Origin: Ignavibacteriaceae bacterium
GTDB lineage: Bacteria > Bacteroidota > Ignavibacteria > Ignavibacteriales > Ignavibacteriaceae
NCBI GenBank assembly: GCA_008933765.1
Contig: WBUK01000006.1
Span: 62,001 to 126,000, forward strand
Direction: 5' to 3'
Length of the DNA stretch: 64,000 nucleotides
Shown one piece after another: positions 38,590 through 41,734 of this stretch (position 1 is the first letter of the stretch; every line of letters starts with the position of its first letter). Both the position numbers and the translations under genes were made by a program. Under the pieces are notes generated by a model. That model worked only from the letters and a program-made list of their open reading frames with translations. It was not told the origin of the DNA and did not search any database.

Positions 38590-38724
38590 TAAGACTCCTT
38601 TAAAATTTAAAAAAATGAAGTGTTGCCGTATCTCATGTTTGCACAAAAAGTATTGGGTCAATCGTTTGAGCTAATTTACCCGGTGCCCTGTTTGTGCTGA
38701 AAGTTCTCTGTATGTTTGCGGGTT

Positions 38725-38950
38725 GCACTTCTTCGCATTCAAATTGTATCAGCCAAAAGCAGGGAATCGCCTTTCCCTCTCCCACTTTTCACCGGCAGCA
38801 CTTCTTAGCATTCAAATTGTATCAGCCAAAAGCAGGGAATCGCCTTTCCCTCTCCCACTTTTCACCGGCAGCACTTCTTCGCATTCAAATTGTATCAGCC
38901 AAAAGCAAAATTTCTGCCCGCAAAAGGCTCACCGGCAGCACTTCCGCCTT
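38725..38950 (+). repeat. 73-bp tandem repeat, three copies plus remnant
   Basis: Units beginning GCACTTCTT(C/A)GCATTCAAATT start at 38725, 38798 and 38871, with a remnant at 38938. The first two are almost identical, while the third changes after CCAAAAGCA. They fill most of the 369-bp gap between dCMP deaminase and mgtE and generate false open frames on the plus strand. Confidence 0.85.
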
Positions 38951-38958
38951 CCCAAATA

Positions 38959-40338
38959 TCACAAAAGCGTGCCGCGCAGAAAAATGGCGGCGCAGGTGAA
39001 GTAAATTATGATTCCGGTAACATCCACGAGCGTGGAAACGAACGGCGCAGATGAGGTGGCGGGGTCAAAACCTAAGCGCTTGAGAACCAACGGCAGCATC
39101 GAGCCGACAAATGTGCCCCACAAAACCACTCCTACCAACGCTGTTGATACACTTAGAGCTATCTGGAACCAATAATCAAGTTGGCTCATATCCAAAAATT
39201 CTAATATTGCTATTCTGAAAAACCCGATTATCGCCAAAATCACCCCCAGTACTAAACCCGTTATGAACTCTTTGCGCATTACGCTCCACCAGTCGTGAAT
39301 CGTTATTTCACCCAGCGAAAGCGCCCGCGTAACTAATGTTGCCGCCTGCGAACCCGAGTTACCTCCCGAAGCTATAACCAACGGAATGAAAAGCGAAAGT
39401 ACAAGTGCCTTCTGAAGTTCTGCCTCGAAAATCCCAATCGCTGAAGCCGTTAAACTGCCGCTTATGAACAGCACCGCCAACCAGCCAACCCGCTTTTTTA
39501 TCATCTGAGGAATGGAAGTATCAACATAAGAATCCTCCAACGCCGAAACCGCACCGAGTTTTTGAATATCTTCGGTTGCTTCTTCTTCTGCCACATCCAG
39601 AACATCATCCACCGTTACGATGCCGATCAGAACACCCGCTGAGTCAACTACCGGCAGCGAAAGTTTGTCGTACTTTTTGAAAACTTCCACCGCTTCTTCC
39701 TGATCGTCAAACGCACTGAGGGAGATGAAGTTGCTGTCCATTAAGTCATAAACCTTTTTGTGTAAAGGGTTTAGCAGGAACTCACGGATTCTTATATCAT
39801 CGACCAACTGCCCCTTCTCGTTGATTACATAGATGGTGTTCAGAGTTTCGGTATCTTCACCGTATTCCCGTATGTGATCCAGAACTTCTTTGATCGACCA
39901 GTCTTCTTCCACTGCAAGATAGTCGGGGGTCATAAGTCTTCCGACCGAGTTTTCGGGGTATCCAAGCAGCCGGCTGGCAACTGCCCGCTCTTCGTTTGAA
40001 AGGTAAGACATCATCTGCTTTGTTATATGCGCAGGAAGCTCTTCGAAGAAGGCGGTTCTGTCGTCGGGCGACATTTCGTTCAACACATTCGACACTTCCT
40101 CGCGCCCCATCGCTTTGATTATGCCGATTTGGTCGTCGGTGTCTAAATATTCGAAAGTTTCAATTTCAACATCTTTGGGGAGTACCCGGAAGAGAACCGC
40201 CCGATCGTTGTCAGGCAGGCAGGAGATAAGGTCAGCCAGGTCCGCAGGGGTCCATTCATCTATTAATTCTCTGATCGGCGAAAGATTCCGTTGCTCTATC
40301 AGTTCGCTGATCTCTGGCTGAAGTATTTTTCCTATCAT
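38959..40338 (-). CDS. mgtE: Magnesium transporter MgtE
   Basis: MgtE is a Mg2+-selective channel gated by cytoplasmic magnesium. The 459-aa product has the N-domain of HEAT-like helices (residues about 20-130, with PDDRTAFFEELP), two CBS domains (about 135-255, with VGRLMTPDYLAV and VDDVLDVAEEEA), a linker helix, and five C-terminal membrane helices containing PLVIASGGNSGSQAATLVTRAL, the pore signature. Length is normal and GGAG precedes the ATG. Its 3' end lies next to the 73-bp repeats. It is transcribed alone. Confidence 0.96.
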   Translation of the reverse strand: MIGKILQPEISELIEQRNLSPIRELIDEWTPADLADLISCLPDNDRAVLFRVLPKDVEIETFEYLDTDDQIGIIKAMGREEVSNVLNEMSPDDRTAFFEELPAHITKQMMSYLSNEERAVASRLLGYPENSVGRLMTPDYLAVEEDWSIKEVLDHIREYGEDTETLNTIYVINEKGQLVDDIRIREFLLNPLHKKVYDLMDSNFISLSAFDDQEEAVEVFKKYDKLSLPVVDSAGVLIGIVTVDDVLDVAEEEATEDIQKLGAVSALEDSYVDTSIPQMIKKRVGWLAVLFISGSLTASAIGIFEAELQKALVLSLFIPLVIASGGNSGSQAATLVTRALSLGEITIHDWWSVMRKEFITGLVLGVILAIIGFFRIAILEFLDMSQLDYWFQIALSVSTALVGVVLWGTFVGSMLPLVLKRLGFDPATSSAPFVSTLVDVTGIIIYFTCAAIFLRGTLL

Positions 40339-40607: not shown

Positions 40608-40679
40608 GGGTGCGTAGCTCAGGGGTAGAGCATCTGCCTTTTAAGCAGAGGGTCGGTGGTTCGATCCCACCCGCACTCA
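40608..40679 (+). tRNA. tRNA-Lys (anticodon TTT)
   Basis: The cloverleaf is complete. Acceptor GGGTGCG pairs with CGCACTC. The D-arm is GCTC/GAGC. The anticodon stem TCTGC/GCAGA closes loop CTTTTAA with anticodon TTT. T-arm GGTGG/CCACC closes TTCGATC, and the discriminator is A. CCA is not encoded (ACA follows). A perfect 14-bp terminator hairpin starts 7 bp later. Its 3' half is repeated five times downstream in degenerate tRNA-like units. Confidence 0.97.
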
Positions 40680-40685
40680 CAATTA

Positions 40686-40725
40686 CAACAAAGCCTTCGG
40701 TGATCTCGAAGGCTTTGTTGGTTTT
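40686..40725 (+). terminator. Terminator of tRNA-Lys
   Basis: CAACAAAGCCTTCG pairs perfectly with CGAAGGCTTTGTTG around GTGATCT, followed by GTTTT. A diverged copy of the same hairpin ends the repeat array at about 41556-41591. Confidence 0.85.
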
Positions 40726-40826
40726 AAAAGGTAACCTAACTCAGTTGCGCCTCAACTTAAATAAAACTTGAAACTTTAACCCTTCTTCTTTTTAGAAAAT
40801 TTCCGGGGAAAGGTGTTGTTTAACTT

Positions 40827-40883
40827 GTTAGAGCATTCCGATTAATCGGAAGAATCGGTGGTTCGATCCCACCCGCACTCACA
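40827..40883 (+). pseudogene. tRNA-like copy 1
   Basis: It contains GTTAGAGCA, the palindrome TTCCGATTAATCGGAA and the complete T-arm and 3' acceptor half of tRNA-Lys. The upstream bases (AGGTGTTGTTTAACTTGTTAG) look like a decayed acceptor and D-arm. The anticodon loop has lost three bases. An AAGTCCTTGTAA / TTACAAGGACTT hairpin follows. Confidence 0.75.
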
Positions 40884-41008
40884 AGTTAAGTCCTTGTAAT
40901 TAAATAAGTTACAAGGACTTCTTTGTATTAAAATAAATGTTCTCTTAAACTGAATACTTCACCCCTCTTCACTTTAAAAAATTTCCAGCGAAGTGTGTTA
41001 TCTGATTT

Positions 41009-41065
41009 GTTAGAGCATTCCGATTAATCGGAAGGGTCGGTGGTTCGATCCCACCCGCACTCACA
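41009..41065 (+). pseudogene. tRNA-like copy 2
   Basis: The core matches copy 1 with GGGTC, as in true tRNA-Lys, before an intact T-arm and CGCACTC acceptor half. AGTGTG upstream (near 40992) can still pair with CGCACT, so a full cloverleaf with a six-base anticodon loop is possible. Confidence 0.75.
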
Positions 41066-41188
41066 AGTTAAGTCCTTGCACATAAAAAATGTAAGGACTT
41101 CTTTGTATTAAAATAAATGTTCTCTTAAACTGAATACTTCACCCCTCTTCACTTTAAAAAATTTCCAGCGAAGTGTGTTATCTGATTT

Positions 41189-41245
41189 GTTAGAGCATTC
41201 CGATTAATCGGAAGGGTCGGTGGTTCGATCCCACCCGCACTCACA
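41189..41245 (+). pseudogene. tRNA-like copy 3
   Basis: It is identical to copy 2 across the core and 180 bp downstream of it. Confidence 0.75.
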
Positions 41246-41368
41246 AGTTAAGTCCTTGCACATAAAAAATGTAAGGACTTCTTTGTATTAAAATAAATGT
41301 TCTCTTAAACTGAATACTTCACCCCTCTTCACTTTAAAAAATTTCCAGCGAAGTGTGTTATCTGATTT

Positions 41369-41425
41369 GTTAGAGCATTCCGATTAATCGGAAGAATCGG
41401 TGGTTCGATCCCACCCGCACTCACA
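41369..41425 (+). pseudogene. tRNA-like copy 4
   Basis: It is as copy 3 but with AATC before the T-arm, as in copy 1, which suggests conversion between copies. Confidence 0.75.
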
Positions 41426-41494
41426 AGTTAAGTCCTTGCACATAAAAAATGTAAGGACTTGTTTATTTTAAAGGAAATTCCGATTTTCCCACTT

Positions 41495-41551
41495 GTTAGA
41501 GCATTCCGATTAATCGGAAGGGTCGGTGGTTCGATCCCACCCGCACTTACA
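41495..41551 (+). pseudogene. tRNA-like copy 5, ends the array
   Basis: The core is as copy 2 but the acceptor end is CGCACTT. It is followed by a diverged copy of the tRNA-Lys terminator (ACAAAACCTTCG with CGAAGGCTTTGT, about 41557-41590), so the array is bracketed by the same terminator. Confidence 0.75.
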
Positions 41552-41734
41552 ATTACAACAAAACCTTCGAGACCATCGAAGGCTTTGTTGTAAATAAATC
41601 ATACTCTTTTAATCGAGAGACTAAAAACTATATAAATAAAGTTAGAAATGAACTAATTTACACCGTTGAAAAATGTCTTAAAAATCAGAAATATGTTAAG
41701 AATTTGCAAATATAAACAGTTCTTTCATCTATCT

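What the first reader, a model, noticed from the sequence alone, without database searches (positions are those of the whole stretch)
40608..41591. tRNA-Lys followed by five tandem tRNA-like units, three nearly identical
After an intact tRNA-Lys(TTT), the T-arm and 3' acceptor half recur five times in units of up to 180 bp. Each has GTTAGAGCA, a TTCCGATTAATCGGAA anticodon arm that has lost three loop bases, and its own hairpin. Copies 2-4 are almost identical, so amplification is recent. The tRNA-Lys terminator is duplicated at the far end, bracketing the array. Readings: repeated integration at the tRNA 3' end leaving tandem att sites; a decayed tRNA gene cluster; or expressed tRNA-like small RNAs.
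Basis: partly seen in the sequence, partly recalled or inferred. Interest (0 to 1): 0.82.

Follow-up and report, generated by a model that had tools for sequence, protein, structure and literature searches.

The report
Selfish nuclease cassettes parasitizing tRNA genes
Beside a lysine tRNA gene lie five partial tRNA copies whose middle hairpin has been swapped for a palindrome; related bacteria carry the same kind of copy together with a small DNA-cutting (GIY-YIG) gene at this and many other tRNA genes, so the row is likely the leftover of a selfish gene that is predicted to spread by cutting tRNA genes and being copied in during repair.

Summary
The array is real: an intact tRNA-Lys(TTT), then five partial copies (D-loop to 3' end), three in units 178-180/180 identical, with the tRNA's terminator repeated at the far end. 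The anticodon arm was not trimmed; it was replaced by a perfect palindrome, TTCCGATTAATCGGAA. In relatives (order Ignavibacteriales, inferred) such copies follow tRNA-Lys, and in several the gap before them holds an ~85-aa GIY-YIG endonuclease gene. A survey of all GIY-YIG matches in five genomes put 20 of 34 small-gene loci within 120 bp of a same-strand tRNA (0 opposite; 0.065 expected), over eight amino acids. In a profile-selected sample of 87 loci, 70 have a partial copy of the adjacent tRNA on the gene's far side, usually with a palindrome. Nuclease lineages follow tRNA identity (21 changes vs 47.7 shuffled) but not host family (24 vs 24.4), as expected of homing elements. The window's own genome has such copies at tRNA-Lys, -Val, -Ser and -Asp and one intact nuclease gene (at tRNA-Asp). 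I read the window array as a nuclease-less derivative of a tRNA-homing cassette. Homing, cut site and the palindrome's role are inferred; no nuclease remnant is detectable in the window units.

The parts
40608..40680 (+). intact tRNA-Lys(TTT), the parasitized host gene
   Evidence: ARAGORN; Rfam RF00005 70 bits
40683..40720 (+). terminator-like hairpin of the intact tRNA (CAACAAAGCCTTCG...CGAAGGCTTTGTTG)
   Evidence: inverted repeat I14; repeat pair I1 and family D3 with the hairpin at the far end
40827..40882 (+). copy 1: GTTAGAGCA + palindrome + tRNA-Lys 3' half to CTCAC
   Evidence: repeat family D2; sequence
40836..40851 (+). palindrome TTCCGATTAATCGGAA in place of the anticodon arm, copy 1
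40888..40920 (+). hairpin (AAGTCCTTGTAA...TTACAAGGACTT) after copy 1
   Evidence: I25
41009..41064 (+). copy 2
   Evidence: D2
41018..41033 (+). palindrome, copy 2
41070..41100 (+). hairpin after copy 2
   Evidence: sequence
41189..41244 (+). copy 3 (its 180-bp unit is identical to that of copy 2)
41198..41213 (+). palindrome, copy 3
41250..41280 (+). hairpin after copy 3
   Evidence: sequence
41369..41424 (+). copy 4 (178/180)
41378..41393 (+). palindrome, copy 4
41430..41460 (+). hairpin after copy 4
   Evidence: sequence
41495..41550 (+). copy 5, the distal one, probably the oldest (inference)
   Evidence: D2
41504..41519 (+). palindrome, copy 5
41553..41593 (+). second copy of the tRNA-Lys terminator, closing the array
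   Evidence: I11, I1 and D3

Best explanation
The array is five partial tRNA-Lys copies, each with its anticodon arm replaced by a palindrome, and is likely the nuclease-less derivative of a family of GIY-YIG endonuclease cassettes that sit beside tRNA genes across the (inferred) order Ignavibacteriales and are predicted to spread by homing into those genes. Shown: the copies, the palindromes, the nuclease genes in the same position in relatives, the same-strand tRNA association, the two mirror layouts (tRNA - nuclease - 3' copy, and 5' copy - nuclease - tRNA), the tandem arrays, and nuclease lineages that follow tRNA identity rather than host family. Inferred: the nuclease cuts a cassette-free tRNA gene. 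The broken 5' half pairs with the cassette's intact tRNA and the broken 3' half with the partial copy. Repair copies everything between, so the tRNA is rebuilt and nuclease plus copy are left beside it. Occasional cutting of the intact tRNA in a cell that already has the cassette, repaired from a sister chromosome, would add one unit per event and give tandem arrays. The palindrome replaces the cut segment in the copy, so the copy is not cut and the cassette is not deleted by annealing between the two tRNA repeats. In the window the units have no nuclease gene; loss of the gene, or amplification without it, is inferred.
For: tRNA-Lys copies of this design in at least 14 of 164 order genomes: 7 by a strict pattern (in six of them the intact tRNA-Lys lies just upstream on the same contig) and G019, G073, G075, G128, G148, G153, G159 by a looser look. 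In G009, G065, G102, G075 and G148 the gap encodes a GIY-YIG protein (Pfam E 4e-18 to 4e-16), often ending at a stop inside the copy's D-loop. 18 tRNA-Lys copies from 12 genomes: identity to their own tRNA 0.99 in T-arm and 3' acceptor, 0.75 in D-arm, 0.59 in anticodon arm, 0.32 in 5' acceptor (the search required TAGAGCA, so its 1.0 there is by construction). Five-genome PF01541 survey: 20 of 34 small-GIY loci within 120 bp of a same-strand tRNA, 0 opposite, 0.065 expected. The adjacent tRNA aligns to the gene's far flank at score >=40 in 64 of 104 tests vs 31 of 2080 for tRNAs of another amino acid. Tree of 69 loci: isotype 21 changes vs 47.7 shuffled (0 of 200); host family 24 vs 24.4 (106 of 200). 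Tandem cassettes in single-contig genomes: 5 at tRNA-Asp in G004, 5 plus a broken sixth at tRNA-Leu in G021, 3 at tRNA-Pro in G028. Own genome: palindrome-bearing copies at tRNA-Val (with the same duplicated-terminator bracket), -Ser and -Asp, and one intact GIY-YIG gene at tRNA-Asp. Precedent: the phage GIY-YIG enzyme SegB cuts inside tRNA genes and drives tandem amplification of a tRNA segment (PMC13096335: abstract, passages, section 10).
Against: No GIY-YIG remnant is detectable in any window unit (best 0.1 bits; 38 to 107 of 200 shuffles score as high), whereas a G019 remnant and a 27-residue C-terminal piece in G115 score 27 and 34 bits. The intact tRNA keeps its native anticodon arm beside intact nuclease genes, so the insertion does not destroy the supposed target as in a classic homing site. 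The palindrome's sequence is shared across different tRNAs, which a mere 'destroyed site' does not need. The nuclease is a bare 84-aa catalytic domain closest to UPF0213 and Slx1, with no separate DNA-binding domain for a long site. 14 of 34 small-GIY loci are not within 120 bp of an intact tRNA, and 11 of them are unexplained. In G087 a cassette follows a tRNA-Lys 3' half with no intact tRNA in the fetched stretch. No empty-site pair of near relatives was found. 19 of 89 copies lack a perfect inverted repeat with arms of 6 or more, and some of the 70 that have one are counted for a neighbouring terminator hairpin. tRNA-Met cassettes do not cluster in the tree.
Confidence: 0.66

Rival explanations
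1. The palindrome, not the tRNA, is what the nuclease cuts: a small structure- or dyad-specific GIY-YIG enzyme breaks the palindromic hairpin in the copy, and repair between tRNA repeats spreads and multiplies palindrome-bearing units, including nuclease-less ones acted on in trans (as REP palindromes and their RAYT nuclease are thought to work; that comparison is recalled).
For: Dyad kept: six of six stem pairs always paired in 11 distinct tRNA-Lys copies; two vary, always on both sides (7 cells, 0 of 500 shuffles), four never vary. Palindromes of the kind YCCCGAY..RTCGGGR or CTCCGAY..RTCGGAG in copies of Lys, Val, Pro, Met, Ala, Asp and one Gly tRNA. Bare catalytic domain near the branched-DNA enzyme Slx1. 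Nuclease-less arrays: 11 units of 67 bp at tRNA-Asn in G028; own tRNA-Val and the 5' copies at own tRNA-Asp.
Against: Nuclease lineages follow tRNA identity although the palindrome is much the same at several tRNAs. Palindromes of this kind also lie away from tRNA copies: 10 of 38 in the own genome are at tRNA copies; of the other 28, 9 were looked at and none lies beside an intact tRNA (nearest 770 bp).
Confidence: 0.25
2. Tandem attachment sites left by repeated integrase-mediated insertion at the tRNA 3' end.
For: tRNA-Lys probably is an integration site in relatives: 3'-half copies keeping CCTTTTAAGCAG lie 14.6 kb (G002) and 1.9 kb (G094) from the tRNA, and on another contig in G064.
Against: In the window copies both strands of the anticodon stem are replaced while D-loop sequence on the far side is kept; no PF00589 match on the window's contig; in relatives the unit carries GIY-YIG, not an integrase.
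Confidence: 0.05
3. Plain unequal crossing-over or slippage multiplied one tRNA pseudogene; no nuclease takes part in the window.
For: Copies 2-4 lie in head-to-tail units 178-180/180 identical; no nuclease remnant.
Against: Does not explain the palindrome, nor the same design at tRNA-Val, -Ser and -Asp of the same genome and beside nuclease genes elsewhere. It may still be the last amplification step.
Confidence: 0.15
4. The copies are expressed tRNA-like small RNAs (decoys or regulators) kept by selection.
For: Each unit is followed by a terminator-like hairpin; the replaced arm keeps a stem.
Against: 5' acceptor identity 0.32; below the tRNA gathering score; patchy presence, seen in 14 of 164 genomes.
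Confidence: 0.07

Closest known systems
Phage T4/T6 SegB (free-standing GIY-YIG homing endonuclease beside tRNA genes; PMC2988022 passages; PMC13096335 abstract, passages, section 10)
   Same: GIY-YIG nuclease gene next to tRNA genes; cuts within tRNA genes; drives tandem amplification of a tRNA segment; mobile between hosts.
   Different: Here chromosomal, order-wide and faithful to one tRNA per lineage. The nuclease is only a catalytic domain (not compared with SegB by a call). Cassettes carry a partial tRNA copy, usually with a palindrome in place of one arm, in two mirror layouts.
Homing genes that carry a replacement end of their host gene (fungal mitochondrial atp6 case, Allomyces; recalled, not looked up)
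   Same: Element next to a host gene with that gene's terminal part duplicated.
   Different: tRNA instead of protein gene; bacterial; palindrome-marked copy; tandem arrays.
Integrative elements at tRNA 3' ends (tyrosine integrase)
   Same: Site at tRNA; tRNA 3' half duplicated.
   Different: No integrase in cis; anticodon arm replaced on both strands; a unit of about 0.3 kb holds only a GIY-YIG gene.
UPF0213 / Slx1 GIY-YIG domains
   Same: Nearest solved structures by profile and fold.
   Different: I read no paper on UPF0213 (one search listed one that only mentions it). Slx1 structures are larger chains named structure-specific endonuclease.
REP palindromes with RAYT nuclease (recalled)
   Same: Short palindromes, some in tandem, with a nuclease gene among them and nuclease-less copies.
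   Different: Different nuclease fold; palindromes here sit inside partial tRNA copies.

Membership tests
free-standing GIY-YIG homing element (family in relatives) | GIY-YIG catalytic domain with its conserved residues | tested here: met
   PF01541 E 4e-18 to 4e-16 for 5 of 5 proteins; Y5, R25, H29 invariant and Y15, E61 in at least 90% of 51 rows; pLDDT 90 model. Their catalytic role is recalled.
free-standing GIY-YIG homing element (family in relatives) | lies beside a defined target gene, with target faithfulness | tested here: met
   20 of 34 loci beside a same-strand tRNA; isotype clustering 21 vs 47.7 changes
free-standing GIY-YIG homing element (family in relatives) | moves between hosts independently of host descent | tested here: met
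   host-family labels no more clustered than shuffled, 24 vs 24.4; only three family codes, 81 columns
free-standing GIY-YIG homing element (family in relatives) | double-strand cut in the cognate gene and transfer by repair | not testable with these tools
   needs biochemistry
free-standing GIY-YIG homing element (family in relatives) | the carrier's own target is made resistant | tested here: inconclusive
   the partial copy is altered, the intact tRNA is not
window array as member of this cassette family | palindrome-bearing partial copy of the adjacent tRNA | tested here: met
window array as member of this cassette family | GIY-YIG gene or remnant in the unit | tested here: not met
   at most 0.1 bits, within shuffles. 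Hence called a derivative, not a complete member
integrase att array | integrase gene in cis | tested here: not met
   three PF00589 matches in G000, on C21, C31 and C37, none on C29
tRNA gene | complete cloverleaf above Rfam threshold | tested here: not met
   three copies at 21-23 bits vs 29, the other two not listed; only the intact gene

The most novel reading that the evidence does not exclude
A new class of tRNA-bound mobile element: a minimal GIY-YIG nuclease and a palindrome that it cuts or folds around. The palindrome replaces a D-, anticodon- or T-arm in a partial copy of the very tRNA that the element parasitizes, in two mirror layouts, with nuclease-less satellite arrays (such as the window's) multiplied in trans by a nuclease at another tRNA gene of the same genome.
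Probability: 0.3. Interest if true: 0.88.

Novelty: new variant of a known kind. Interest (0 to 1): 0.76.

Why it matters
tRNA genes are well-known landing sites for mobile DNA, but the known users are integrases and, in phages, SegB-like nucleases. An order-wide set of ~0.3-kb cassettes, each lineage faithful to one tRNA and carrying a palindrome-marked piece of it, would be a natural home-and-rescue system that invades essential genes without breaking them. It explains tRNA-fragment arrays that annotation would pass over, and makes a nuclease-palindrome-tRNA specificity code directly testable.

Tried and rejected
Rejected: integron attC (by eye, no consistent core sites); tmRNA-like or intact tRNA function; chance hits to Rfam Plastid-ycf2 and mir-374, both below threshold; assembly artefact (same kind of array in single-contig genomes G004, G021, G028, G080). 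Led nowhere: GIY-YIG remnant search in the window (negative); plasmid search (none); empty-site comparison, by eye, of G009 with its congener G034 and of the window with G003/G002 (five flanking proteins had no match in the fetched stretches). A first reading that one nuclease locus repeats tmRNA sequence was wrong: the repeat beside it is not tmRNA. Viral contigs: 16 relatives, of which I looked at one, L245, which starts with tRNA-Lys plus cassette and is probably bacterial sequence at a provirus edge.

Selection to know about: the 87 loci come from the top of the listing, searched with a profile built from tRNA-Lys-linked nucleases; one search is the check with Pfam's own model on all hits of five genomes. 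The 120-bp limit there was set after seeing the distances. The copy test is loose. In one search I kept one row per locus and dropped hits without a flanking copy, hits under 180 nt and one long-branch row (69 rows left). In one search, 11 distinct copies were aligned; identical ones were merged, G075 and the main G148 copy were left out because their hairpins are imperfect, and copies that the extraction did not show (G077, G018, G088, G095) were not used.

Full report
Observation. The window holds one tRNA, tRNA-Lys(TTT) at 40608-40680. Downstream lie five partial copies spaced 182, 180, 180 and 126 bp. Each starts in the D-loop (GTTAGAGCA), then has TTCCGATTAATCGGAA where the tRNA has TCTGCCTTTTAAGCAGA, then the variable loop, T-arm and 3' acceptor strand. 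Three 180-bp units are 178-180/180 identical. The tRNA's T-arm-to-terminator stretch recurs at copy 5 (72 nt, 89%). In the own genome the array was found only here, plus a stray 30-nt fragment.

Relatives. A strict pattern for the copy, palindrome included, matched 7 of 164 order genomes. Patterns that did not ask for the palindrome, only for a non-native arm between GAGCA and GGGTCGGTGGTTCGA, found one further arm, CTCCTGACTGATTAAGTCGGAG in G148. Seven more genomes whose tRNA-Lys differs or whose copy is imperfect were seen at nuclease loci or by eye (G019, G073, G075, G128, G148, G153, G159), so 14 of 164 is a lower bound. Each copy's 3' half matches that host's own tRNA-Lys, local variants included, with 0-2 differences.

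The nuclease. In G009, G065, G102, G075 and G148 the stretch between tRNA-Lys and the copy is a GIY-YIG gene of about 85-93 codons. G009 has two in tandem, the distal one with YIG changed to SIG; G050 has one with a stop inside; G019 has pieces, and in G115 the gene is cut by contig ends. The gene often ends at a TAG inside the copy's D-loop. One metagenomic protein (P0006) reads in one frame through tRNA-Lys, GIY-YIG and the start of a palindrome-bearing copy (translation matched by eye). The model is a single GIY-YIG domain (pLDDT 90), nearest to UPF0213 and Slx1.

Generality. A profile of these proteins matches 145 of 164 order genomes and 2451 protein clusters among 4236 candidates. Of 87 loci fetched from the top of the listing (111 hits), 73 have an intact same-strand tRNA within 150 bp, 0 an opposite-strand one, and 70 a partial copy of the neighbouring tRNA on the other side of the gene. 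That copy test is loose: own tRNAs pass it in 89 of 104 trials, a tRNA of another amino acid in 238 of 2080; at the stricter score 64 of 104 against 31 of 2080. Two mirror layouts occur: tRNA - nuclease - 3' copy (60 hits) and 5' copy - nuclease - tRNA (29 hits), six hits being counted in both. The less biased check used Pfam's own model on five genomes: 72 matches, of which 62 are small (frames under 200 aa) and form 34 loci. 20 of 34 loci are within 120 bp of an intact same-strand tRNA (Asp, Ser, Asn, Ala, Leu, Pro, Arg, Cys), 0 opposite, 0.065 expected. Of the other 14, one lies 545 bp from tRNA-Val, one 163 bp after tmRNA but with flanking repeats that are not tmRNA, and one has three pieces that look like a tRNA-Leu 5' end (recalled; no intact tRNA in the fetched stretch) with a palindrome. 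The other 11 are unexplained.

Target faithfulness. On a tree of 69 loci (one row each) tRNA isotype needs 21 changes against 47.7 when shuffled (0 of 200 as low). Host family needs 24 against 24.4 (106 of 200). Nuclease lineages thus stay with their tRNA and pass between host families, as expected of homing. Limits: 81 columns, many unresolved forks, only three family codes; tRNA-Met cassettes do not cluster and tRNA-Val needs 7 changes for 11 rows.

The palindrome. 70 of 89 copies contain a perfect inverted repeat with arms of 6 or more within 25 nt of the match (31.4 expected from random segments of the same loci); some of these are neighbouring terminator hairpins. 41 are of the CCGA..TCGG kind, over Lys, Val, Pro, Met, Ala, Asp and Gly. 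Asn copies have, for example, TCCGTTAGCTAACGGA and Ser copies CCCCGCATTTTGCGGGG. In 11 distinct tRNA-Lys copies all six stem pairs are always paired; two vary, always on both sides, and four never vary. By eye it sits in the anticodon arm (Lys, Val, Pro), D-loop (Ser, Asn) or T-loop (Asp in G004). Its role is unsettled: protection of the copy (my choice), or the nuclease's own substrate.

Own genome. Palindrome-bearing copies also lie at tRNA-Val (three in tandem, nuclease-less, with the same duplicated-terminator bracket as in the window), tRNA-Ser and tRNA-Asp; an intact GIY-YIG gene follows tRNA-Asp. It is the only small GIY-YIG match there; the other two are frames of 623 and 595 aa (genome 90% complete). 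The same-genus genome G003 has a copy with TTCCGATTTATCGGAA 5' of its tRNA-Lys; G002 has at that place a copy with the native arm. The window units show no trace of the gene, so 'derivative of the cassette' rests on layout, palindrome and position.

Mechanism. Shown: architecture, association, faithfulness, tandem arrays of intact cassettes. Inferred: cutting, repair between tRNA halves, protection by the palindrome, array growth by self-cutting. The closest experimental precedent is SegB: it cuts within tRNA genes at a motif that I read as T-loop-like, and its activity is needed for tandem amplification of a tRNA segment (PMC13096335; abstract, outline, passages, section 10). SegB is a T4 homing enzyme listed with the tRNA intergenic region as target (PMC2988022, passages).

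Novelty. Ten searches of the open PMC library listed no paper whose title or abstract start concerns chromosomal tRNA-linked GIY-YIG cassettes with palindrome-bearing tRNA copies. Only listings were seen for all but the two papers above; subscription papers and preprints are not held, so this is weak evidence. I call it a new variant of free-standing homing elements.

Noticed in passing
L220 (G004:C1:2258664-2260476): A small GIY-YIG gene starts 163 bp after a tmRNA gene and is flanked by direct repeats of about 45 bp that are not tmRNA sequence.
   Followed up: partly
L214, L219 (G004): Small GIY-YIG genes not at RNA genes, bounded by CCCCGTCAAAT / ATTTGACGGGG-like or CCCCGTGAGAT / ATCTCACGGGG-like inverted sequences; L214 may interrupt a coding frame (by eye).
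   Followed up: no
L201 (G028:C1:328600-330800): Eleven head-to-tail 67-bp nuclease-less units made of the tRNA-Asn 5' end plus TCCCGATGTATCGGGA.
   Followed up: partly
L091 / L051 (G087:C33): A GIY-YIG gene follows a tRNA-Lys 3' half (with native anticodon loop) instead of an intact tRNA.
   Followed up: partly
L005 / L212 (G000:C28:83714-83743): A stray tRNA-Lys 3'-end fragment with no tRNA in the fetched 3 kb, between palindromic CCCAATATTGGG-like stretches.
   Followed up: no
L037, L038 (G002:C1:565259 and 579871): A stretch of about 14.6 kb between tRNA-Lys and a 3'-half copy that keeps the native anticodon loop, as an integrase island would leave.
   Followed up: no
G000, 38 sites: CCCGAN{2,6}TCGGG occurs 38 times in the genome against 5 for the reversed pattern; 10 are at tRNA copies.
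   Followed up: partly
L203 (G005 tRNA-Lys): Several tRNA-Lys 3' copies with clustered palindromes in place of the T-loop, then a GIY-YIG frame with a stop.
   Followed up: no
L245 (IMGVR_UViG_3300048038_000024): A 42.6-kb viral-collection contig begins with tRNA-Lys, a GIY-YIG cassette and a copy whose palindrome has an expanded loop.
   Followed up: partly
window 38694-39004: Overlapping frames with a repeated peptide (FKLYQPKAGNRLSLSHFSPAALL...) between a dCMP-deaminase-like gene and mgtE; looks like a small tandem repeat.
   Followed up: no
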